DNA of 63,402 nt from Hyphomicrobiales bacterium (GTDB taxonomy: Bacteria > Pseudomonadota > Alphaproteobacteria > Rhizobiales > Methyloligellaceae): contig JAJFHP010000020.1 of the NCBI GenBank assembly GCA_021775555.1, positions 1-63,402 of the forward strand, given 5' to 3'. Each line of letters opens with the position of its first letter. The stretch's first letter is position 1. Below are positions 40,546 to 52,658 of the stretch, piece by piece. The translations under genes were made by a program, and so were the position numbers. Under the pieces are notes generated by a model. It worked only from the letters and a program-made list of their open reading frames with translations, did no database searches and was not told the origin of the DNA.

Positions 40546-42435
<1,890 letters not shown>

Positions 42436-43211: not shown

Positions 43212-44459
43212 TCAATTGGCTGGCGAGTTACCTTCCCCGTTTTCCCACCTCCAAATGTCATGCCAGTGTGTCGCTTCTTTAAATGCGAGACGAAAGGACC
43301 TTGGAGTCACGAGTCCGAGATCGTGGCGGATCAGCGTTTCTCGCCAAACGTATTCCACACTTCGAATATGGCCCCTTGCACCAAATTTTGAGGGGAACAG
43401 ATAAGGAGAGACGAATTGTTCTTCGCCTAGTTCAAAACATCTTTGAATTAAGTTGGCAGTGGTGCCCCTAATTATCTCTCGCCCCTTCCAACCCCTTGCA
43501 TACTGCCAGATATATCCATTCTTGGTCGTATCGTCAGTTCCAAACGGATCTGAGATTTGAGTTGGGAATATGTCGTCGCGTCGTGCTGCCATGATCTGCG
43601 ATAACGGAGCTGATCCAGTCAGATAAAGACGAATACAAGCTGCCTGTTGCCATCTTTCATTGTCTTCAGTCAAATCGTCCAAGAGATCAAAAAACTGCTT
43701 TCTTTTCCAATGCCTAAGCTTCGGTGGAAATGAAACGCTATATGCAACCCGATCGCCCAAATCCAAATAACCATATGGCGAGGACTTGGTTTCAACGCCG
43801 AAATTGAACGGAATTTCCAGGGCACGGCGAAGAAGTGGCCGAAGAATACGAATGTTGCCAGGCTTCGTGTTTAACGTGTTGAGGACCTTCGCCACATCGT
43901 CCAGAGTTATTTCACAAGCTCTCTTATTCGCGATTGCTGGTACTGAACTCGCAACGTAAATATCAAACAGCTTTTGCAATCTATCTCGGTAGGCGAGTGA
44001 GAGGCCTTCAAACTCCATCCCCTTTATGATCGCCTTCACGGCTTGTTCTAGTGACAAAGTTGATGCTCGCTCTTTCCCAACTCGCTTCTGCTCTTCATCT
44101 TCCTCGGCGAGAGTTGGCTTTCCTTTGATGCGATTGATTTCGTCGTATGCCCAAGAGCGAGCGATGCGAACTCCTTCTCCCAAAGCCGCATTTTCTGGAT
44201 CGAGGGGCGGGAAGTTCCACGCAAACTCATGCCGATGATGGAGAAAATAGGCATCCCATAAACGAAGCGTGCGACGGATCGAGCGTCCGTTGGGATCAGA
44301 AACCCTCACGCCATAGGCTTTTTGTGGCTTGCCAGAGGAATCCCGCCAAAGCCGCAAACCAAATCCTTTGATCTGCGTGTCTGCAATCCAACGCTCGCCG
44401 GTTGCGGGTGGTTCCGCTTCGTCGATGATCCTTTGATTTAGTATTGCTCGCTCGACCAT
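43212..44459 (-). CDS. tyrosine recombinase-like integrase, probably inactive
   Basis: A 415-residue protein with the layout of alphaproteobacterial phage/island integrases: an N-terminal arm-binding domain ('DTQIKGFGLRLWRDSSGKPQ' region), a core-binding segment (about 130-230) and a C-terminal domain. The catalytic residues look eroded. Box I, normally TGxRxxE, reads TGSAPLSQ; box II, normally HxLRH, reads PRSFRLAF; and the protein ends soon after THWHDIW with no tyrosine nucleophile in the usual place. It may be a relic or a divergent family. Base composition is lower in GC than the flanking core genes. It points toward the thiC end, as an integrase next to its attachment site would. Confidence 0.7.
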   Translation of the reverse strand: MVERAILNQRIIDEAEPPATGERWIADTQIKGFGLRLWRDSSGKPQKAYGVRVSDPNGRSIRRTLRLWDAYFLHHRHEFAWNFPPLDPENAALGEGVRIARSWAYDEINRIKGKPTLAEEDEEQKRVGKERASTLSLEQAVKAIIKGMEFEGLSLAYRDRLQKLFDIYVASSVPAIANKRACEITLDDVAKVLNTLNTKPGNIRILRPLLRRALEIPFNFGVETKSSPYGYLDLGDRVAYSVSFPPKLRHWKRKQFFDLLDDLTEDNERWQQAACIRLYLTGSAPLSQIMAARRDDIFPTQISDPFGTDDTTKNGYIWQYARGWKGREIIRGTTANLIQRCFELGEEQFVSPYLFPSKFGARGHIRSVEYVWRETLIRHDLGLVTPRSFRLAFKEATHWHDIWRWENGEGNSPAN

Positions 44460-44518
44460 TCCTTTGGCGATGTTTAGCTAATGTTCTAATAGGTGTAGTA
44501 TGCCCCATTCCCTTCTAA

Positions 44519-44665
44519 ACTTGAACTTTGTCTTTGATCTCCAATCATCCGGTTAGTGTCCGGAATTGGTCTTCTCTCCACTTCTCTCCACTTGTATCAA
44601 TGCCGGGCATCATGGGCGCTTCGCTTCCACCCTCTTGCCGAGGGCGGTTGAGCGCCCGTTTCGTT
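44519..44665 (+). repeat. structured repeat R2, copy A
   Basis: About 140 bp shared with 47093-47232, e.g. 'TTTGTCTTTGA', 'AATTGGTCTTCTCTCCACTT', 'ATGCCGGGCAT' and 'GGGCGCTTCGCTTCC'. It folds as GGGCGCT (44614-44620) with AGCGCCC (44651-44657) enclosing CCCTC/GAGGG (44630-44634, 44640-44644). The inner stem differs from the other copy but stays paired. It lies immediately before R1 copy A. Confidence 0.75.
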
Positions 44666-44678
44666 CATCAAGAACAAT

Positions 44679-45199
44679 CTTATCCCCGCCTTCCAAACCT
44701 CCTCTAAACTCCGTCGCATCTCTTCCTCATCAGGGACGCGGGCTTAAGACCGTCTTGAACCGAGAGGGAGAGAGCGGTTCCTGCGAAGACTCTTTGTCTG
44801 CGCTACCGCCCTTTGGGCTACTTGAGCGCGAGGGGTGTGATGCGGTCAGGCATGTGGGCTTAACGACCCCAGTCTTCCCGGGCGTGCCGTCCCGGACCCG
44901 GGGGTACTATGGCCCCCGCGCCGAAGTGCAATTTAGGTTGCGCTACCGCTTCGCACCTTGAGCGCGGTTTGTTTTCACAGATCACGTCCTCAAGTAGCCG
45001 CAAGGCGGTAGGACACTTAAATGAGACGCCGGGCGGATTTCGCAAAGAAGCCGTGCGCGGGGCGCTGGAAGGCTGCCCTAGTCAAACGGAGTGCGGTCAT
45101 CCAGTGCTTCGCGCAGTCCTGTCCTCAACTAGCCGCCAGGCGATAGGACAGCCAAAGATGAGCTTTTTGATACGCGGGCGCTTCGTGAGGCATCCGCCT
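44679..45199 (+). ncRNA. structured repeat R1, copy A (candidate large ncRNA)
   Basis: About 520 nt, matching 51296-51730 in the same orientation. Conserved blocks include a 40-nt identical 5' block containing CATCAGGGACGCGGGCTTAA, the hairpin GAACCG/CGGTTC (44757-44762, 44775-44780), GTGCCGTCCCGGACCCGGGG, and a hairpin at 44986-45014. Helices at GAAGACT/AGTCTTC (44785-44791, 44871-44877) and at 45055-45069/45100-45114 keep pairing although the other copy has other bases. Copy A has an extra ~60-nt hairpin inside the first variable helix. Short open frames cross it but copy B has none, so it is most likely non-coding. Transcription is not shown. Confidence 0.6.
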
Positions 45200-45230
45200 G
45201 TTTCGGCATGCTTTGCTGACAGATAATGAC

Positions 45231-45323
45231 GGCATGGACGAGATGAGCGAGAAGTTCAAAGAGATGGGGTCCGAGGTTTATGCGGATGCCGCTGCCGCAA
45301 TGCCGAGCAATGAGGGGCTTTAA
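45231..45323 (+). pseudogene. thiC 3'-end fragment 2
   Basis: Thirty codons plus stop reading [20 protein letters not shown] and ending PSNEGL-stop, against resident Thi[21 protein letters not shown]...RSNEGL-stop. It is in the same direction as thiC, 2.9 kb downstream, with many base differences, and follows R1 copy A at once. It has no start of its own and is a gene-end remnant. Confidence 0.8.
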
Positions 45324-45384
45324 ATGGTGTGCTGCCACCCCATTTGACCTACTGGGACACTAATTGCAGCAGGGAGTCACATCC

Positions 45385-46146
45385 ATGAATTTGACTGACA
45401 TTTTAGCCGAGGCCCAGGGCGGGCAGGCGATGGCCAATATCGGCCGGCAGTTCGGGCTTTCCGAGCAGCAGAGCGCTGAGGCCGTGCGCCATCTGCTTCC
45501 GGCCTTTACCGCCGGGCTGCAGCGCAACACGGCAACGCCCCTGGGCATGGCCGAGCTTCTGGCGGCGCTCAGCGGCGGACAACATGCGCGCTATTATGAC
45601 GACCCTGCCGAGATGGAAAACAGCGCCACGCGCGATGCCGGCAATGATATTCTCAAGCACCTGTTTGGAAATAAGGATGTCAGCCGCGCTGTCACCCAAC
45701 AAGCCGCGGCGCAGACCGGAATTGGCTCGGCAATCCTGAAGGCCATGCTGCCCTATATTGCCTCCATGATTATGGGCGCCCTGTTCAAACGGGGGCAGAA
45801 CCCGATTGGCGATATCCTGGGAGAGATATTGGGCGGGGGGTCTGCGCGCGCAGGCCACGAGGCCGGACGCCAGGGGCGCGAGAGCGGCGGGCGTGGTGCG
45901 AACGATCCCTTCGGGGAGCTTTCGGACATCTTCAAAAAGCAGATCGAGACACTCCCAGGTGACGGGCCGGCGCCTTCGCCGCAATCAGAGTCCGCACAGG
46001 CCGATGCGCCTGCCCCGCAGACACAATCCGGAACGCCGCAATTCCCCGGCGCGGATGCTGATATTTTCAAGGAAATTTTCGAAACCGAGGGCAACCGCTC
46101 GCCGTTTGAGGATATCCTCAAAGATATGCTCGGTGGGCGGCGGTAG
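45385..46146 (+). CDS. DUF937 domain-containing protein
   Basis: A 253-residue protein. The N-terminal half (MNLTDILAEAQGGQAMANIG, 'FGLSEQQSAEAVRHLLPAFTAGLQRN') is a YidB-like DUF937 domain of helical repeats; a hydrophobic stretch near residues 117-135 is followed by a glycine/serine/proline-rich, poorly ordered C-terminal part. Function is unknown. ATG 45385 has AGGGAG about 8 nt upstream. It lies in the accessory region just behind thiC fragment 2. Confidence 0.85.
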   Translation: MNLTDILAEAQGGQAMANIGRQFGLSEQQSAEAVRHLLPAFTAGLQRNTATPLGMAELLAALSGGQHARYYDDPAEMENSATRDAGNDILKHLFGNKDVSRAVTQQAAAQTGIGSAILKAMLPYIASMIMGALFKRGQNPIGDILGEILGGGSARAGHEAGRQGRESGGRGANDPFGELSDIFKKQIETLPGDGPAPSPQSESAQADAPAPQTQSGTPQFPGADADIFKEIFETEGNRSPFEDILKDMLGGRR

Positions 46147-46154
46147 GGATCACC

Positions 46155-46170
46155 TTCCGCGAGATGGGCG
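46155..46170 (+). repeat. 16-bp match to thiC fragment 1
   Basis: TTCCGCGAGATGGGCG is identical to 42561-42576, the beginning of thiC fragment 1, and the reading FREMG is kept. Similarity fades afterwards. It may be a third, mostly eroded thiC end or a recombination scar. Confidence 0.45.
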
Positions 46171-46208
46171 CGGGTGTCCTTTCACTGCATGAACAAGGGA
46201 AAAAACTG

Positions 46209-46994
46209 ATGTACTTCCGTAGCTTCAGCCTGGCCCTCGTGGCCGCGTGCCTCGCTTTCTCAGCCGCCGCGCAGGATATCTCAAGCGGGCGCTGGGTCGA
46301 CCTGACCCATGCCTTCAACGAGCGCTCGGTCTACTGGCCAACCGCGAAGATGTTCGAGAAAACGGAAGTCTTTCATGGACACACCAAGGGCGGCTGGTTT
46401 TATTCCGCTTACAATTTTTCAGCAGCCGAACATGGCGGTACGCACATGGACTCACCCGTTCATTTTGCGCAAGGCGCCAACACCGCTGACAAGGTGCCGC
46501 TTGAGCAGCTGATCGGCCCGGGCTTCGTCATAGATGTGTCGCGCCAGTCAGCGGCCAACGTGGACTATCTGGTGAGTGCAGCCGATATCGAGGCATTCGA
46601 GGCCAGGCACGGGCAAATCCCCAAAGGCGCCATCGTGCTGCTGAACACGGGGCGCGCGAAACTCTATTCCGACCGCAAGTCCTATATGGGGACGGACGAA
46701 CGCGGCGCCGGCGCTGTGCCTAAGCTGCATTTCCCGGGCCTCGGCGTCGATGGCGCAGCACTTCTGGTCGAGCGCGCGATTGGCGCGGTGGGCATCGACA
46801 CGCCCTCCATCGACTACGGCCAGTCGAAGGATTTCGCCGCCCACGTGAAGCTGATGACGAACAATATACCCGCGTTTGAAAACGTGGCGGACATGAGCGC
46901 GCTGCCTGCGATTGGCAGCACCATCGTCGCGCTGCCGATGAAGATCGAGGGCGGCTCGGGCGGCCCGCTCAGGATCGTGGCGCATCTGCCGTAA
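46209..46994 (+). CDS. secreted cyclase-family (kynurenine formamidase-like) protein
   Basis: A 261-residue member of the cyclase/KynB family. The metal motif 'AEHGGTHMDSPVHF' (HxGTHxDxPxH) is present, together with 'WVDLTHAFNERSVYWP' near the start and 'VGIDTPSIDYGQSKDF'. Unlike KynB it has a signal peptide (MYFRSFSLALVAACLAFSAA, cleaved near AQ-D), so it acts in the periplasm. Its natural amide or ester substrate is unknown. ATG 46209 starts the signal; the open frame upstream is not conserved. Confidence 0.88.
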   Translation: MYFRSFSLALVAACLAFSAAAQDISSGRWVDLTHAFNERSVYWPTAKMFEKTEVFHGHTKGGWFYSAYNFSAAEHGGTHMDSPVHFAQGANTADKVPLEQLIGPGFVIDVSRQSAANVDYLVSAADIEAFEARHGQIPKGAIVLLNTGRAKLYSDRKSYMGTDERGAGAVPKLHFPGLGVDGAALLVERAIGAVGIDTPSIDYGQSKDFAAHVKLMTNNIPAFENVADMSALPAIGSTIVALPMKIEGGSGGPLRIVAHLP

Positions 46995-47071
46995 TGGAAA
47001 AGATGCCGGAGAGGGAGAGGGCGCGGTTCTGGCTCGATGTCTATGGGCGGCTCAAGCCTGCGAAAAACTGA
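46994..47071 (+). CDS. possible 25-codon ORF coupled to the cyclase stop
   Basis: A short frame (MEKMPERERARFWLDVYGRL plus five residues) starts at the TAATG overlap with the cyclase stop. The arrangement would allow re-initiation, and the peptide is highly charged. A related MPER start with the same bases ATGCCGGAGAGGG occurs at about 48369. It may equally be a gene remnant. Confidence 0.25.
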   Translation: MEKMPERERARFWLDVYGRLKPAKN

Positions 47072-47092
47072 ACCCACCCCATCCCCATTCTT

Positions 47093-47232
47093 AACCTGAC
47101 CTTTGTCTTTGAAATCCAGGATCAAGGACAGTGCCTGAAATTGGTCTTCTCTCCACTTTGATCCAATGCCGGGCATTACGGGCGCTTCGCTTCCTCCCTC
47201 GCGGGAGGGTGACTGAGCGCCCGTTTTATTCC
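47093..47232 (+). repeat. structured repeat R2, copy B
   Basis: Second copy of the ~140-bp repeat at 44519-44665. Outer stem GGGCGCT (47180-47186) with AGCGCCC (47216-47222) is the same, while the inner stem is CCTCCC/GGGAGG (47193-47198, 47203-47208) instead of CCCTC/GAGGG. This change with retained pairing supports selection on RNA or cruciform structure. Confidence 0.75.
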
Positions 47233-47281
47233 CCTCGCGAAATCTTCTTCCCACCACCGGGCGTGCGGTCAGGCCGCATGG

Positions 47282-47304
47282 ATTGCCGGAACAAGTCCGG
47301 CAAT
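47282..47304. repeat. single REP-like unit
   Basis: ATTGCCGGA (47282-47290) and TCCGGCAAT (47296-47304) form a 9-bp stem with ACAAG loop, followed by GATGAC. It matches the second unit of the dimer at 42448-42548. As there, CTCCGCGAG follows about 16 nt later. Confidence 0.7.
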
Positions 47305-47336
47305 GATGACATAAAGGAAACTCCGCGAGCAAAACC

Positions 47337-47972
47337 ATGCCCGACCGGTCCAAACACTGGGATGACGTCTATCGCAGGCGCGATGAGGTTGATCTCACAT
47401 GGTATGAGGCACACCCCGGCGTTTCATATGACCTTGTGACCGCCAACTCCCGGCCATGCGATGCGATCATTGATATCGGCGGCGGCACGTCGCGGCTCGT
47501 CGATGCGCTGGTCAAGGACGGCTATGAGGCCATCACGGTCCTCGACGTGTCGCAAGCCGCTCTCGAGACGGCCATGGAACGGCTGGGGGAGCTTGCACGC
47601 CAAGTGACGTGGATCGCGGCTGACATGACCGTATGGGTCCCGACGCGCACCTACGATCTCTGGCATGACCGGGCGGTGTTCCATTTCCTGACCGGACTGT
47701 TAGACCGCGCGGCCTATGTTGCCGCGATGGATGCCGCACTTGCCCCGGGCGGCACTGCGATCATTGCAACCTTTGCCGGGGACGGTCCGGAGACATGCTC
47801 CGGCCTGCCGGTGATGCGGTATTCACCAGACCGGCTGGCCGGGACAATCAAGGCGCTGGCCCCGGGCCGTTTCGAGGCCGTTGAAGCGCGGCATCATATG
47901 CATGTGACGCCAAAGGGAATGGGTCAGAGTTTCCAGGTTTCCGTGTTCAGGAAAACGTCAGGGGCGAAATGA
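47337..47972 (+). CDS. class I SAM-dependent methyltransferase
   Basis: A 211-residue methyltransferase with the SAM-binding motif I 'AIIDIGGGTSRLVDALVKDGY', the acidic loop 'VTVLDVSQAAL'-like segment and 'IAADMTVWVP', typical of the UbiE/thiopurine-type single-domain fold. 'HWDDVYRRRDEVDLTWYEAHPG' at the start resembles bacterial SAM enzymes often annotated as tellurite-resistance or trans-aconitate methyltransferase-like. Substrate unknown. Confidence 0.87.
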   Translation: MPDRSKHWDDVYRRRDEVDLTWYEAHPGVSYDLVTANSRPCDAIIDIGGGTSRLVDALVKDGYEAITVLDVSQAALETAMERLGELARQVTWIAADMTVWVPTRTYDLWHDRAVFHFLTGLLDRAAYVAAMDAALAPGGTAIIATFAGDGPETCSGLPVMRYSPDRLAGTIKALAPGRFEAVEARHHMHVTPKGMGQSFQVSVFRKTSGAK

Positions 47973-47978
47973 GGGGTT

Positions 47979-48278
47979 TTAGAAACCCTGGTAATTTTCC
48001 GCCTCATCGCGGGAGTGTAGTGATGATGAGCAATGAAGAGACCATGTCACATATGTGGCGTCTCTCACCTCGCTCTCGCAGTGCTCGGGATCACGCAGCA
48101 GCCAGTTGATGGAACGCGCACAGATACACCCCATCCATCTGCCTTGCGCCTGCGCTTCGCCGGCCATGACGGAAAGCGTCTTTCCAAACAGGAGACGGCA
48201 AGTCCAGCCATACGCCCAGACGATACGCTGATCAAAGCCTTGGGTTCCGGGGCGCGGTGGCTGGAATTGCGTTAACAT
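47979..48278 (-). CDS. possible hypothetical protein
   Basis: A 99-residue frame starting MLTQFQPPRPGTQGFDQRIV, with GGAG 6 nt before ATG 48278. It contains several cysteines and tryptophans and no repeat or membrane segment. It fills the space between the methyltransferase and VOC genes on the other strand. I do not recognise it; it may be a real small protein or a gene remnant. Confidence 0.35.
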   Translation of the reverse strand: MLTQFQPPRPGTQGFDQRIVWAYGWTCRLLFGKTLSVMAGEAQAQGRWMGCICARSINWLLRDPEHCESEVRDATYVTWSLHCSSSLHSRDEAENYQGF

Positions 48279-48398
48279 GGTTTCGCTCCATCGTTGAGCG
48301 AGGGACATCCCTCCCTCTGCTCATTGGTCGCAATGGCACGCAAAAAGGTTCAATGTGGGGTTGGAAAAATGCCGGAGAGGGTTAAGGGATAAGGACAC

Positions 48399-48932
48399 AT
48401 GGAGATCCTGCAGATTGAAGGCGTCCACCACATCACCCTGAACGGGGCCGACCGGCAAACCTCGATTGATTTCTGGGAGGGGGTTCTGGGAATGCCGTTC
48501 GTGTTCGAGCAGCCCAACCTGGACGACCACGCGATCAACCACCTTTATTTCGACCCCGGCGACGGGCGCCTCATCACCATCTTCACCAGCGAAGACTGGA
48601 AGCCGGACGCAACGCCTAACCCAAACGGCATCGGCAACTTGCATCACCTGGCCTTCACTGTCGCGCGCGCGCAATACGAGGCGGCGGCCGCGCGGCTGAA
48701 GGACGCCGGCTTTGCGCATTCGGGCGAGGTCGACCGCGGCTTCATGGATTCGCTCTATTTCCGCGATCCCCTGGGGCAGCTCATGGAACTGGCCTGCTAC
48801 AAGTTTGCGCCGCCGGAGGGATCAACCCATGCGGACGTGCTTCGCGCCGCGCACCATATCCGCCTCGCGTGCGGCGATGTCGCCATTTCCGACCCGCATA
48901 TCGCGCAGGCCTTAGAGGAGCTTGGAGCGTAG
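48399..48932 (+). CDS. VOC family (glyoxalase/dioxygenase-like) protein
   Basis: A 177-residue vicinal-oxygen-chelate protein. It begins 'IEGVHHITLNGADRQTSIDFW', giving the first metal His, has 'NLHHLAFTV' in the second module and the Glu ligand region 'FRDPLGQLMELACY'. Such proteins include ring-cleaving dioxygenases and glyoxalase-like enzymes; the DPLGQLMEL tail is common in the dioxygenase-annotated group. The frame opens with ATG 48399 after GGGATAAGGA. Confidence 0.87.
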   Translation: MEILQIEGVHHITLNGADRQTSIDFWEGVLGMPFVFEQPNLDDHAINHLYFDPGDGRLITIFTSEDWKPDATPNPNGIGNLHHLAFTVARAQYEAAAARLKDAGFAHSGEVDRGFMDSLYFRDPLGQLMELACYKFAPPEGSTHADVLRAAHHIRLACGDVAISDPHIAQALEELGA

Positions 48933-48963
48933 GGGGAGTAGGTTACCCTGAGAGTGCTCACCC

Positions 48964-49097
48964 GTCATTCCGGTGAAAACCGGAATCCAGTAGAGCGAGT
49001 TCCACACCCAACACTGCTAAAGACTGGATCCCGGATCGCGCAGCAGATCATCTCCGAGACATACCCATTGCCCGGGCTGCTGCTTGTCCGGGATGAC
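48964..49097. repeat. REP-like inverted dimer, interrupted
   Basis: Unit one is ATTCCGGT/ACCGGAAT (48967-48974, 48979-48986) followed by CCAGTA; unit two is ATCCCGGA (49028-49035) with TCCGGGAT (49087-49094), its loop enlarged to about 50 nt. The units face each other and share GTCAT and CCAGT ends with those after thiC. Confidence 0.7.
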
Positions 49098-49212
49098 GAA
49101 GGGGAGGGAATGACGAAAATTGGTTACGCATGCTCACCCTCGTCACTCCCGGGTCAAGCGCAGAGAGTGATGCGCATAACCGCACCGTAAAATCCTACGA
49201 AATTTTGAACCT

Positions 49213-49250
49213 TTTCGCTCCTTCCCGCGACCAATGGGAAAGGAGCGAAA
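49213..49250 (+). promoter_or_regulatory. hairpin that buries the ribosome site of the 53-codon ORF
   Basis: TTTCGCTCCTT (49213-49223) pairs with AAGGAGCGAAA (49240-49250), and CCC (49224-49226) with GGG (49236-49238) after one bulged A. The AAGGAG ribosome site of the following gene lies wholly in the 3' arm, 3 nt before its ATG region, so translation should be blocked unless the stem opens. Confidence 0.65.
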
Positions 49251-49253
49251 ACC

Positions 49254-49415
49254 ATGACCTACGTCATCGTCACCGGAAAAGACGCGGTTTCAGGGCTTCC
49301 GGCCCGCACCTACCAGACCGCGTTCAACCAGGCCAGGCGCCTTTACGGTGGCGATGTGGACGTCTGGATGAAGCTCAATCTCCGTATCGAGGAAAACCGG
49401 AAAACTGGTGCGTGA
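49254..49415 (+). CDS. small hypothetical protein, 53 residues
   Basis: Starts MTYVIVTGKDAVSGLPARTY, continues with a basic, amphipathic middle (NQARRLYGGDVDVWMKLNLR) and ends KTGA. A perfect AAGGAG site is 8 nt upstream but sits in a strong hairpin. I do not recognise the family. The stop is followed at once by a thiC-end fragment. Confidence 0.5.
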   Translation: MTYVIVTGKDAVSGLPARTYQTAFNQARRLYGGDVDVWMKLNLRIEENRKTGA

Positions 49416-49418
49416 ATT

Positions 49419-49463
49419 TTCACGCAGCTCGGCAATGAGATTTATGTGGACGCGGAAGAGCCG
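49419..49463 (+). pseudogene. thiC 3'-end fragment 3
   Basis: Fifteen codons (FTQLGNEIYVDAEEP) match Thi[13 protein letters not shown] and thiC fragment 2. It is in the thiC direction but ends without the GL-stop tail. The short length leaves some doubt, but it lies in the same region and frame style as the longer fragments. Confidence 0.55.
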
Positions 49464-49504
49464 CCTTTTGAACGTGATTGCTCTGTTGATCGGGCATCGA
49501 GAAC

Positions 49505-49966
49505 CTATGCAGCGTGCGATATCCGTATTTTCTTCCAAAGCCAAAAAACAGCCATTGGGCTCGCAACGAATACCGCAGTTGCGATCAAGAGAACTACTAA
49601 ACCTTCGAATCCGGCTTTTCCTAAGAGTTCGCCCACAACTGTGGTTGGAATGGAGAAAATACCACCACCCATTTTCACATGCCCCAGCCCCAACAGTGTC
49701 GTATAGCCGTCAAAAACTATACACATCAGCCAAAATCCTTTGATCCAACTTGGGGCTCCATCTTGGCCCAATATATCAGTTGTCATGAAATTCATCGCAA
49801 CAGCGCCTATCGAAATCGCTATTGGTATGCCCCACATGTAAAAAGGAGCTCCCGACTGGAGGTCAAAGAATGCGATGGCCCCCACAAGTGACGTGAGCCA
49901 GTCATACGCCACGCATGGCACTAGCATCGCAATAATTACTTTATAGAACATATTGCCACTCCACAT
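49505..49966 (-). CDS. hypothetical four-helix membrane protein
   Basis: A 153-residue protein with four hydrophobic helices at about 8-34, 40-62, 75-100 and 115-142. GC content is lower than that of the flanking core genes, suggesting transfer. Starts at ATG 49966 or 49951 are both possible, the latter with GGAG 8 nt upstream. Family not recognised. Confidence 0.65.
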   Translation of the reverse strand: MWSGNMFYKVIIAMLVPCVAYDWLTSLVGAIAFFDLQSGAPFYMWGIPIAISIGAVAMNFMTTDILGQDGAPSWIKGFWLMCIVFDGYTTLLGLGHVKMGGGIFSIPTTVVGELLGKAGFEGLVVLLIATAVFVASPMAVFWLWKKIRISHAA

Positions 49967-50020
49967 AATTGAACCTGCACAATAGGCGAATACTATTCTT
50001 GATAGAAGAAACTCGTGCTG

Positions 50021-50086
50021 AAGATTGGAAGATGGGCCGAGAAAGGCGAGGAGGTTTACGTCAAGCAGGTGGAGGAGGCGTTGTAA
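50021..50086 (+). pseudogene. thiC 3'-end fragment 4
   Basis: Twenty-one codons plus stop (KIGRWAEKGEEVYVKQVEEA, then L and TAA) resemble the end of ThiC proteins (EKGxEVYV...L-stop). It is the most diverged copy and again lies on the thiC strand. Confidence 0.5.
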
Positions 50087-50131
50087 AGCTCAAACCGGGG
50101 CTTTGATCTAAATATACCGACCAAAATTGAG

Positions 50132-50326
50132 CTAATCCTTATGATCCAATAAAACCGCATCGTTTGGTTCATACTTGACCGCCTTCTTGGCAGCCTTTTT
50201 CTTTGGCTTTGGTCGAATCTATATCGGTGGCTTAGGATCAGCTAGTCGAGCGCCTCGCAATGCTTGCTCAAAGCTGTGTAGCGTTTCCTTTTCCTCGTAT
50301 GTGTAGCTGGAATTGTGTTTGGCCAA
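50132..50326 (-). pseudogene. small basic-protein gene with an in-frame stop
   Basis: On the minus strand a frame from TTG 50326 (GGAG 7 nt upstream) reads LAKHNSSYTYEEKETLHSFE and on to DPKPPI, meets TAG at 50219-50221, then continues IRPKPKKKAAKKAVKYEPND to a TAG at 50132. The lysine-rich continuation looks like true coding sequence, so either the gene has a nonsense mutation or only the first ~36 codons are used. It overlaps the start of the divergent HNH gene. Confidence 0.4.
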
Positions 50327-51134
50327 GATTGATCTCCGATACCCAAAGCCCTTATTGAAGGTCTACGACCCGGTCCGAAAGTGCATCTATTGTGGAGCCG
50401 AACCGCCAAACAATGAATTGTCCAAGGAACATATTATCGCCCTTGGACTATCTGGAAGCCTCATACTTCCGCGTGCCAGCTGTTCTGCATGTCGTCAAAC
50501 TACCGGTGATGTTGAAAGCGAATATCTGCAAAGGATGATCCCGGATGCGCGTCAGCATCTTGGCCTTGCCAGCCGCCGCAAACGGCGCAACAAGCGACCA
50601 CCGCCACCTCTAAAAATTGGCAGGATAGACGCGACTGGAAAAGTCGTTCGTTGGGATCACCTACCGAAACACCTGCATCCCTATTGGCTCAACACATGTG
50701 GCTTGCGCCCTCCGGCGATTCTCTCTAACAGCCGGAACGTCAAAAAGCCCTTTGTCGAAATCGTTCTGTTGCCAGGCCAGGACTGGCAAAGGCGATGGGG
50801 CATGCAGGCACCTAACATCGCAGTCGAGTATCATTTTAGTAGCGATACCTACGCCCGCATGCTCGCCAAAATTGCACATTCATTTGCAATTGCCGAACTT
50901 GGTTTTGGAAGTTTTGAACCGCTGCTCACCGATTTCATATTGAAAGAAAATGACGCGATTTATGACTGCGTTGGCGGCATTGAGCGCGAGGATGACGATC
51001 GCAGTGAAAGGCCGGATGTTCTGCATTCCATCGAATTACTCAAGGAAGATGACTGGGTAATTGTTCGACTTAGACTATTCGCCTTTCTCAAGGGAACGCC
51101 AAGCTATGTTATCGTCGTCGGTCGTACTCTCTAG
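50313..51134 (+). CDS. HNH-domain protein
   Basis: A 273-residue protein. The N-terminal domain has two zinc pairs around an HNH-like centre: CIYCGAEPPNNELSKEHIIA then ASCSACRQTTG, as in HNH_5-type endonucleases of defence and mobile elements. The remaining ~200 residues show no family I recognise; they include a basic stretch (SRRKRRNKRPPPP). The start is unclear: TTG 50313, TTG 50319 or TTG 50355. It lies 160 nt before R1 copy B and is divergent from the disrupted small gene. Composition is lower in GC than the core. Confidence 0.7.
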   Translation: MCLAKIDLRYPKPLLKVYDPVRKCIYCGAEPPNNELSKEHIIALGLSGSLILPRASCSACRQTTGDVESEYLQRMIPDARQHLGLASRRKRRNKRPPPPLKIGRIDATGKVVRWDHLPKHLHPYWLNTCGLRPPAILSNSRNVKKPFVEIVLLPGQDWQRRWGMQAPNIAVEYHFSSDTYARMLAKIAHSFAIAELGFGSFEPLLTDFILKENDAIYDCVGGIEREDDDRSERPDVLHSIELLKEDDWVIVRLRLFAFLKGTPSYVIVVGRTL

Positions 51135-51295
51135 CAGCCACATATACAGCCTCAGCCTAAGCGCGATAATAGTTCCGCCCATGGCGGATCCGCCCTCCAC
51201 ATCAAGCTGATTGAGGCGGAAATTACGGTGACAGCGGAAATTACGGTGACAGTTTACTAATTAAACCAGAGAAATTTGCTTTGCATCTGATCTAT
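51135..51295. other. short spacer before R1 copy B
   Basis: No gene. A tandem duplication of about 17 bp, GCGGAAATTACGGTGACA (51219-51234 and 51237-51252 region), is visible. Nothing else supported. Confidence 0.4.
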
Positions 51296-51730
51296 CTTAT
51301 CCCCGCCCTCCAAACCTCCCATAAACTCCAACCCATCTCTTCCTCATCAGGGACGCGGGCTTAAGACCGTCTTGAACCGTGGGGGAGAGAGCGGTTCCTG
51401 CGAAAGAAAGGGCTAACGGCCTTTCTTTCCCGGGCGTGCCGTCCCGGACCCGGGGGTACTACGGCCCCCGCGCCAGAGGCAGTTTAGGTTGCGCTACCGC
51501 TTCGCTACATGAGCGCGGTTTGTTCTTCACAGATCATGTCCTCAAGTAGCCGAAGGCGGTAGGACACTTAAACAAGACGCCGGGCGGATTTCGATCAAGA
51601 TACCGCGCGCGGGGTGCCAGAGAGGTGCCCAGATTAGTCGGAATGCGCCTTCCTGGCGCTCCGCGCAGTCCCTTGTCCCAAGGGATGGAAGCAACTCTTT
51701 GACCAGCGGGCGCTTAACGGGGCGCCCGAA
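51296..51730 (+). ncRNA. structured repeat R1, copy B (candidate large ncRNA)
   Basis: Second copy of the element at 44679-45199, about 435 nt. The variable first helix is GAAAGAAAGG/CCTTTCTTTC (51402-51411, 51420-51429), 10 bp, at the place of GAAGACT/AGTCTTC in copy A. The long helix is 51607-51620 with 51653-51666 and differs from copy A at several pairs without losing pairing. The next hairpin is TCCCTTG/CAAGGGA (51669-51675, 51679-51685), unrelated in sequence to TGTCCT/AGGACA of copy A but in the same place. No long open frame crosses this copy. Confidence 0.6.
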
Positions 51731-52144: not shown

Positions 52145-52459
52145 ATGCCCAAATTCATTTTCGCCTATCATGGCGGCAAGAAGCCTGAAACCCCCGAAGA
52201 GGGGATGGACTTCATGGCGCGGTGGCGCGCATGGAGCAGTGATAATGACGCGGCTTTTCTGACCAAGGGCGCGCCGGCGGGCATGTCAAAAACCGTCAGC
52301 TCGACAGGCGTTGCGGACGATGGCGGGTCAAACCCCTTGTCCGGCTACTCGGTGGTGGAGGTGGCCGACATGGACGCCGCCCTCGAGATCGCCAAATCCT
52401 GCCCCCATGTGGAGCATGGCACCATCGAGGTCGCCGAGCTCATGGACATGGAAATGTGA
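52145..52459 (+). CDS. YCII-related protein
   Basis: A 104-residue ferredoxin-like protein of the YciI/DGPF type: 'PKFIFAYHGGKKPETPEEG', 'FLTKGAPAGMSKTVS' and 'LSGYSVVEVADMDAALEIAKSCPHVEHGTIEVAEL' are typical. Function is unknown for most members. AAGGAGAC is 5 nt before ATG 52145; the eleven upstream codons include the ribosome site and are rejected. Confidence 0.88.
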   Translation: MPKFIFAYHGGKKPETPEEGMDFMARWRAWSSDNDAAFLTKGAPAGMSKTVSSTGVADDGGSNPLSGYSVVEVADMDAALEIAKSCPHVEHGTIEVAELMDMEM

Positions 52460-52658
52460 GTGGGGCGCTGGAAAGCAGCCTCACTATATCGGATGGGGTT
52501 TTTCAGCGTCCGCAAGTCCCTTGCCCGGGGATGGTGCTGACACCCCCCCCGCGCCTGAGGGCGGCAGGGCGCTCGTCCCTGCGCGAACATTTCTCGGCCA
52601 AAATTGGGTGCTAGGTGCCTCCAGAGAGTCACAGTCAAAAAGTTTGCGAGAGTTGGAT

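What the first reader, a model, noticed from the sequence alone, without database searches (positions are those of the whole stretch)
44679..51730. R1: a ~430-520-nt repeat whose helices are kept by compensatory changes
Copies at 44679-45199 and 51296-51730 share several long conserved blocks, yet at three places the sequence differs completely while pairing remains: GAAGACT/AGTCTTC versus GAAAGAAAGG/CCTTTCTTTC; the long helix 45055-45069/45100-45114 versus 51607-51620/51653-51666; and TGTCCT/AGGACA versus TCCCTTG/CAAGGGA. Such a pattern is what selection on RNA structure produces. Copy B has no long open frame. It does not look like tmRNA, RNase P, SRP or 6S RNA to me. The copies lie at the two sides of the mobile cargo. 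It is a strong candidate for an undescribed large structured RNA or structured mobile repeat.
Basis: partly seen in the sequence, partly recalled or inferred. Interest (0 to 1): 0.82.

Follow-up and report, generated by a model that had tools for sequence, protein, structure and literature searches.

The report
Structured RNA linked to gene-transfer particles
The repeat is one of about ten scattered gene copies of a large folded RNA that matches no known RNA family, and its likely on-switch resembles the one found before some genes for DNA-carrying, virus-like particles (gene transfer agents).

Summary
Ten loci lie in this genome, one of them partial. In 25 aligned copies 64 base pairs are formed in 95.7% of cells, 32 pairs show two-sided changes, and 0 of 500 shuffles do as well. 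A and B match no Rfam family. Relatives occur in 79 of 397 genomes of the order and, class-wide, in 2 further genomes of 385.

New here: most copies start just after a compact promoter, AACTTATCCCCGCC...TAnnCT, with fixed spacing. The same box lies before a DnaA-domain, GafY-like gene in 21 of 30 genomes, the window's own among them. In Aquisalinus and six Devosia-type genomes it lies before GTA terminase genes. In genome G084 a variant box occurs 13 times: 11 clear RNA copies, one RNA-like copy, and the terminase promoter.

I conclude that it is an undescribed multi-copy RNA, probably switched on with the gene transfer agent (GTA) programme. Transcription, GafY binding and function are not shown, and the main GTA promoter of the window's own genus is of another build.

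The parts
44677..44690 (+). Copy A promoter box (ATCTTATCCCCGCC)
   Evidence: motif hits from 44679 and 44680; coordinates
44705..44710 (+). Copy A -10-like TAAACT, 25 nt from TTATCC
44717..45120 (+). Copy A structured RNA; start inferred, 3' end uncertain
   Evidence: model hit 44677-45120, 259.4 bits
44720..44772 (+). Copy A helix 1 (CTCTTCCTC / GAGGGAGAG)
44785..44877 (+). Copy A helix 5 with inserted palindrome in its 5' arm
44800..44829 (+). Palindromic (REP-like) insert 1 in copy A
44887..45036 (+). Copy A helix 7 (CCGTCCCGG / CCGGGCGG), long-range
44900..44917 (+). Copy A helix 8 hairpin GGGGGTACTATGGCCCCC
44940..45013 (+). Palindromic inserts 2 (44940-44965) and 3 (44987-45013) in hairpin 9 of copy A
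45055..45114 (+). Copy A terminal helix 10
45122..45148 (+).
51294..51307 (+). Copy B promoter box (ATCTTATCCCCGCC)
   Evidence: motif hits from 51296 and 51297
51322..51327 (+). Copy B -10-like TAAACT, 25 nt from TTATCC
51334..51672 (+). Copy B structured RNA; start inferred, 3' end uncertain
   Evidence: model hit 51294-51672, 287.1 bits
51337..51389 (+). Copy B helix 1 enclosing helices 2 and 3
51391..51442 (+). Copy B helices 4, 5, 6 (variable hairpin)
51443..51584 (+). Copy B helix 7 (long-range) enclosing helices 8 and 9
51491..51564 (+). Palindromic inserts in hairpin 9 of copy B (51491-51516, 51539-51564)
51608..51665 (+). Copy B terminal helix 10

Best explanation
A and B are two of ten loci, in this genome, of an independently transcribed structured RNA with a core of about 300-340 nt. 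Shown by sequence: conserved secondary structure, a promoter-like box just before the first helix, many dispersed copies, and sharing of that box with a GafY-like gene and, in some lineages, with GTA head genes. Inferred: the box is bound by the GafY-like activator (a DnaA domain IV type DNA-binding protein), so that the RNA copies fire with the GTA programme and give a burst of this RNA in particle-making cells. Inferred and weaker: the RNA acts in trans as a structured RNA or RNA-protein particle in that programme, comparable in role to the phage-linked RNAs GOLLD and ROOL.
For: Structure: 95.7% of cells paired, 32 pairs with two-sided changes, 0 of 500 shuffles as high, slid controls 47.0-52.6% paired. 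Promoter: TTATCC to TA is 25 nt in 25 and 26 nt in 6 of the 32 rows in which a box was found; the partial copy L029 has none. In five f1 genomes 16 of 16 exact matches of the longer motif fall on RNA copies, reversed control 0. A looser motif gives 37 sites in eight genomes: 28 RNA, 4 GafY-like genes, 5 other, control 2. GafY-like genes: Bac_DnaA_C domain, followed by a DUF6456 gene in the window's genome, found in 30 of 36 genomes; 21 of 30 have TATCCCC within 125 nt upstream, 3 a near variant, 6 neither; the reversed word occurs in 0. The box precedes GTA terminase genes in Aquisalinus and in G153, G034, G370, G244, G309, G392. G084: 13 sites of a variant box, control 0. G001 and G004, same genus, lack RNA, terminase and box together. 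In C. crescentus GafY is homologous to DnaA domain IV and binds many promoters besides the GTA one (PMC9632790, PMC11150451, passages).
Against: No transcript, GafY binding or phenotype was seen. The main GTA promoter in the window's own genus has another build (TTGACA/TTTACA-type -35, TAGGA...TCCTA palindrome) and no RNA-type box. Among f6 genomes with a located terminase, G225, G347 and G381 have no motif site near it. In C. crescentus the mapped GafY element lies far upstream and is not this box (PMC11150451). Terminase is in 32 of 34 genomes with the RNA but also in 15 of 21 without a detected one. G012 and G117 have the RNA but no terminase match. Six of 30 GafY-like genes lack the box. 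Eight of 34 copies from other genera or families fail box-plus-TA, and those 34 were found with a model that includes the promoter. The box also precedes trmFO-like genes (named by eye) in Devosia-type genomes.
Confidence: 0.7

Rival explanations
1. An orphan structured RNA outside the GTA programme: its box is a DnaA-box-like element read by DnaA or another regulator, and GTA genes in some lineages merely use the same factor.
For: TTATCCCC resembles the DnaA box TTATCCACA (recalled); the box also precedes trmFO-like genes; 15 of 21 genomes without a detected RNA have terminase; the main f1 GTA promoter is of another type.
Against: In G084 the 13 sites of its variant box are RNA copies and the terminase promoter; the GafY-like gene has the box in 21 of 30 genomes; RNA, box and terminase are absent together in G001 and G004.
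Confidence: 0.2
2. A non-autonomous mobile element whose RNA or single-strand fold serves its own spread; the promoter only feeds that cycle.
For: About ten dispersed copies per genome; flanking genes rarely shared.
Against: No partner gene in more than three loci; no common 3' end seen; the 5' edge is a promoter-like box with near-constant spacing also found before protein genes; some copies share neighbours between species. Empty sites were not compared.
Confidence: 0.1
3. The loci act mainly as binding sites that titrate the activator, the RNA being a by-product. This could coexist with the main reading.
For: Many copies of one box per genome.
Against: Base pairing is kept by compensatory change, which a decoy would not need.
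Confidence: 0.04

Closest known systems
GOLLD and ROOL RNAs
   Same: Large ornate RNAs of unknown function tied to phage programmes; GOLLD rises during lysis (PMC12286853, passages).
   Different: A and B match neither model; core of about 300-340 nt, not 659 to over 800 nt; about ten dispersed copies; copy B has no match in phage or plasmid records.
GafY/GafYZ regulon of C. crescentus and GafA of R. capsulatus
   Same: DnaA domain IV type activator acting on about 20 promoters including its own (PMC9632790, PMC11150451, passages).
   Different: In the passages and word searches made, no non-coding RNA is named; the mapped GafY element differs from this box.
Multi-copy sRNA families of Rhizobiales (RFMSmelA075/A099)
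   Same: Several copies per genome, structured (PMC3927594, passages).
   Different: Those are two to four consecutive similar hairpins; this is a multi-helix fold with a long-range helix. Not aligned against each other here.
REP-like palindromes
   Same: The inserts in hairpins 5 and 9 are such palindromes.
   Different: They are additions: by my patterns 9 of 31 copies scored have none in hairpins 5 and 9.

Membership tests
Any Rfam 15 family | score above the family's gathering cut-off | tested here: not met
   copies A and B only; sole hit near B was mir-992, 18.8 bits against a cut-off of 79
GOLLD / ROOL / OLE / HEARO | match to the family covariance model | tested here: not met
   4227 models searched
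IscB/HEARO-type guide RNA | linked nuclease gene | tested here: not met
   HNH protein of the window has no match in 40 stretches around other copies; no neighbour in more than three loci
Structured non-coding RNA | compensatory changes beyond controls | tested here: met
Structured non-coding RNA | transcribed | not testable with these tools
   no RNA-seq; promoter inferred
GTA regulon | shares promoter element with GTA head genes | tested here: inconclusive
   met in G084, six Devosia-type genomes and Aquisalinus; not met in the window's own genus nor near the terminase of G225, G347, G381
GTA regulon | shares promoter element with the GTA activator gene | tested here: met
   21 of 30 genomes including the window's own; full motif in G000, G006, G007, G012
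GTA regulon | direct binding and activation by GafY | not testable with these tools
   needs ChIP-seq or reporters
Insertion element | defined ends or target duplication | tested here: inconclusive
   5' edge is promoter-like, 3' edge ragged by eye; empty sites not compared
Rhizobiales-1 motif (Weinberg 2010) | match to its alignment | not tested
   listed without Rfam accession in PMC2864571 (passage); alignment not available here

The most novel reading that the evidence does not exclude
Gene transfer agents of Hyphomicrobiales have a dedicated RNA component: a large structured RNA encoded by about ten dispersed genes that fire together under the GTA activator, possibly assembling or packaging in the particle-producing cell, as GOLLD and ROOL may do for phages.
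Probability: 0.5. Interest if true: 0.93.

Novelty: categorically new. Interest (0 to 1): 0.85.

Why it matters
No RNA component of gene transfer agents turned up in the paper searches made here or in the word searches inside four GTA papers. If these RNAs belong to the programme, a domesticated virus that moves DNA between bacteria has kept or gained a conserved RNA machine in many gene copies. It also offers a promoter signature with which to list GTA regulons across genomes and to test them in culturable Devosia and Bosea strains.

Tried and rejected
Integrase or HNH partner: no match near other copies. Recurrent neighbour gene: at most three loci share one. A small Cys-rich frame follows five of 24 copies scanned and was not pursued. 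Introns, tmRNA, RNase P, 6S: no Rfam hit for A or B. Plasmid and phage records: no match to B. A likeness that I first saw between the f1 RNA promoter and the f1 main GTA promoter (AATAATCC) was dropped: there it is half of a TAGGA...TCCTA palindrome that also stands in GafY-like promoters (by eye). Co-occurrence with terminase is only modest. A text search for TTATCCCC gave nothing relevant among 15 listed of 571 papers. Low scores of the genome-contig loci were not used as evidence of homology, because those loci were picked by the promoter that is part of the model.

Rows dropped before counts: one search extracted 38 rows, two of them (L022m, L069m) reverse-strand matches of palindromes. 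could trim 29; skipped were copy A, L027, L029, L070, L071, L086, L099 and the two reverse rows. Alignment A2 uses 25 of the 29; long inserts in hairpins 5 and 9 were cut by script. One search found no box in 6 of the 38 rows. One search was a first, cruder promoter count (25 of 34); one search replaces it with 26 of 34. One search counts 101 matches, but its variable gap counts some sites twice, and most were not classified one by one.
Full report
OBSERVATION. Copies A and B are real, co-oriented and alike over long blocks. The + strand of B folds with z -7.05 and that of A with -4.89 against shuffles; the - strands give -1.97 and -1.17. Rfam finds nothing at gathering level in either copy and, with permissive thresholds, only a mir-992 match far below its cut-off. 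Other copies were not run against Rfam.

COPIES. Searching the window's own genome with B gives ten loci: C12 (A and B), C20, C5, C56, C15, C40, C34, C4, C71, the last with the 5' part only, besides two 28-34 nt palindrome hits. Similar copies lie in G003, G005, G006, G007, G012 and G031. Contig length and position identify G006 as Hyphomicrobiales bacterium SZUA-148 and G007 as bacterium BMS3Bbin10, so the order is taken to be Hyphomicrobiales.

STRUCTURE. From 25 copies, with long inserts cut from variable hairpins, RNAalifold gives 66 pairs, 32 with two-sided compensatory changes. With two outlying pairs left out, 64 pairs are formed in 95.7% of 1595 cells; the shuffled mean is 85.6%, and 0 of 500 shuffles reach the observed value on any of five measures. 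Sliding partners by 1-3 columns drops pairing to 47.0-52.6%. The structure was derived from these sequences, and the shuffles do not keep relatedness, so both controls lean towards it; the size of the two-sided signal (173 cells against 57 shuffled) is the firmer point. Copy G005:C63 swaps the long-range helix 7 as a block for another complementary pair (by eye; it counts as unpaired). Longest frames differ in length, strand and frame between copies.

INSERTS. Short palindromes of the type GCGCTACCGC...TTGAGCGC or its reverse sit in the hairpin 5 arm of 11 and in hairpin 9 of 19 of 31 copies scored, and 3' of the terminal helix in 6 (patterns not exhaustive). They are common elsewhere in the family. 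This explains the third helix of the finding.

DISTRIBUTION. With model R1: 20 of 30 genomes of the family, 79 of 397 of the order covering 36 of 141 genera (stricter filters, E at most 0.001), and 3 of 385 drawn class-wide at E at most 1e-6, being the window's genome and two genomes of one other family. Weak hits may include chance matches.

PROMOTER. By eye upstream DNA is unconserved up to a sharp edge in most copies. From there runs AACTTATCCCCGCC, an unconserved spacer and TAnnCT, then the first helix. TTATCC to TA is 25 nt in 25 and 26 nt in 6 of 32 rows with a box. Among 34 copies from other genera or families, 26 have box and TA at 25-26 nt at the model start; L175, L179, L184 (all f23), L187, L495, L496, L497 and L499 do not. 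In the three f23 copies a TTGAC stands there by eye, with a TATGCT in two. These 34 were found with a model that includes the promoter, so the count is biased. In G000, G005, G006, G007 and G012 all 16 exact matches of CTWATCCCCNCC...TANNCTC fall on RNA copies; reversed control 0.

LINK TO GTA. Besides RNA copies, in Aquisalinus luteolus (L188) the motif precedes a small frame, terminase, portal and prohead protease genes, and in Falsochrobactrum (L210) a DUF2793 gene; that DUF2793 proteins are GTA head spikes is recalled. It also precedes genes of unknown kind. Terminase upstream regions of 30 loci show the box in G153, G034 and G370; one search adds G244, G309 and G392 (terminase-like frames, by eye). 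No site lies near the terminase of G225, G347 or G381. Family f6 is called Devosia-type because G279 sites match Devosia elaeis contigs. One search found 101 matches in 14 genomes, some counted twice, reversed control 1.

THE G084 CASE. Here RNA promoters read AACTTATCGACGCC, and the terminase promoter AACTTATCGACGCG; the usual box has no match in this genome. The 13-mer AACTTATCGACGC occurs 13 times, reversed control 0: 11 at clear RNA copies, one (L413) at what I judge by eye a diverged RNA copy, one before the terminase. The GafY-like promoter of the same genome reads TTATCTACGC, again with A where others have C.

ACTIVATOR GENE. A motif hit in G225 precedes a 141-residue protein with a DnaA C-terminal domain. 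Relatives outside DnaA itself are found in 30 of 36 genomes (one in a frame of 368 codons, one with a stop inside). Of 24 genomes with both genes located, 18 have them 12-34 kb from the terminase, one about 50 kb, two over 300 kb, three on other contigs. In the window's genome the gene is followed by a DUF6456 gene and preceded by a Ros/MucR gene. C. crescentus GafY is described as homologous to DnaA domain IV and GafYZ as a split GafA (PMC9632790, passages); that DUF6456 is GafZ is my inference. TATCCCC stands within 125 nt upstream of 21 of these 30 genes, near variants in 3, neither in 6; the reversed word occurs in 0 of 30 and the reverse complement in 1. In the window's genome the promoter reads AAACTTATCCCCGC with TA at 25 nt. 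Motif TWATCCCCGC...TANNNT gives 37 sites in eight genomes: 28 RNA, 4 GafY-like genes, 5 others, control 2; G001 and G004 have none, and also no RNA and no terminase.

LIMITS. The main GTA promoter of the window's own genus is of a different build. Terminase occurs in 32 of 34 genomes with the RNA and 15 of 21 without a detected one, a weak association. The mapped GafY element of C. crescentus is not this box (PMC11150451, passages). Nothing here shows transcription.

VERDICT. A new multi-copy structured RNA is close to certain; membership in the GTA programme is likely (about 0.7); its function is open. Literature was searched (listings) and passages; no description of this RNA was seen, but only open-licence papers are held and the Rhizobiales-1 motif could not be compared.

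Noticed in passing
window 42324-42435 and 45215-45323: The 3' end of thiC is duplicated around a 2.8 kb stretch that holds an integrase-like frame (43212-44459, named by eye, no Pfam hit) and copy A: looks like a small site-specific insertion into the thiC end.
   Followed up: partly
window 52457-52531: A lone relative of the RNA's terminal hairpin (23 bits) stands directly behind a small gene; hits to the terminal hairpin alone also occur in other genomes.
   Followed up: no
window 44510-44690 and 47085-47255: A second dispersed repeat, one copy ending at copy A.
   Followed up: no
L101, L102, L105, L107, L110, L114, L116: TGTCCGCTTT...AAGCGGACAT repeats end a near-constant few nt before the RNA promoter in these copies.
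   Followed up: no
L242, L361: In two Devosia-type genomes the box precedes trmFO-like genes, named by eye.
   Followed up: no
G000:C13:33787 (L489): The box precedes a frame that reads like a phage minor head protein (by eye), possibly an accessory GTA gene.
   Followed up: partly
L100, L104, L113, L115, L116: A small Cys-rich frame (HCPxxRCRRAxxCR type) follows the RNA in 5 of 24 copies scanned.
   Followed up: no
window 21980, 39997, 62128: serC leader, TPP riboswitch and a Guanidine-II riboswitch, ordinary.
   Followed up: no
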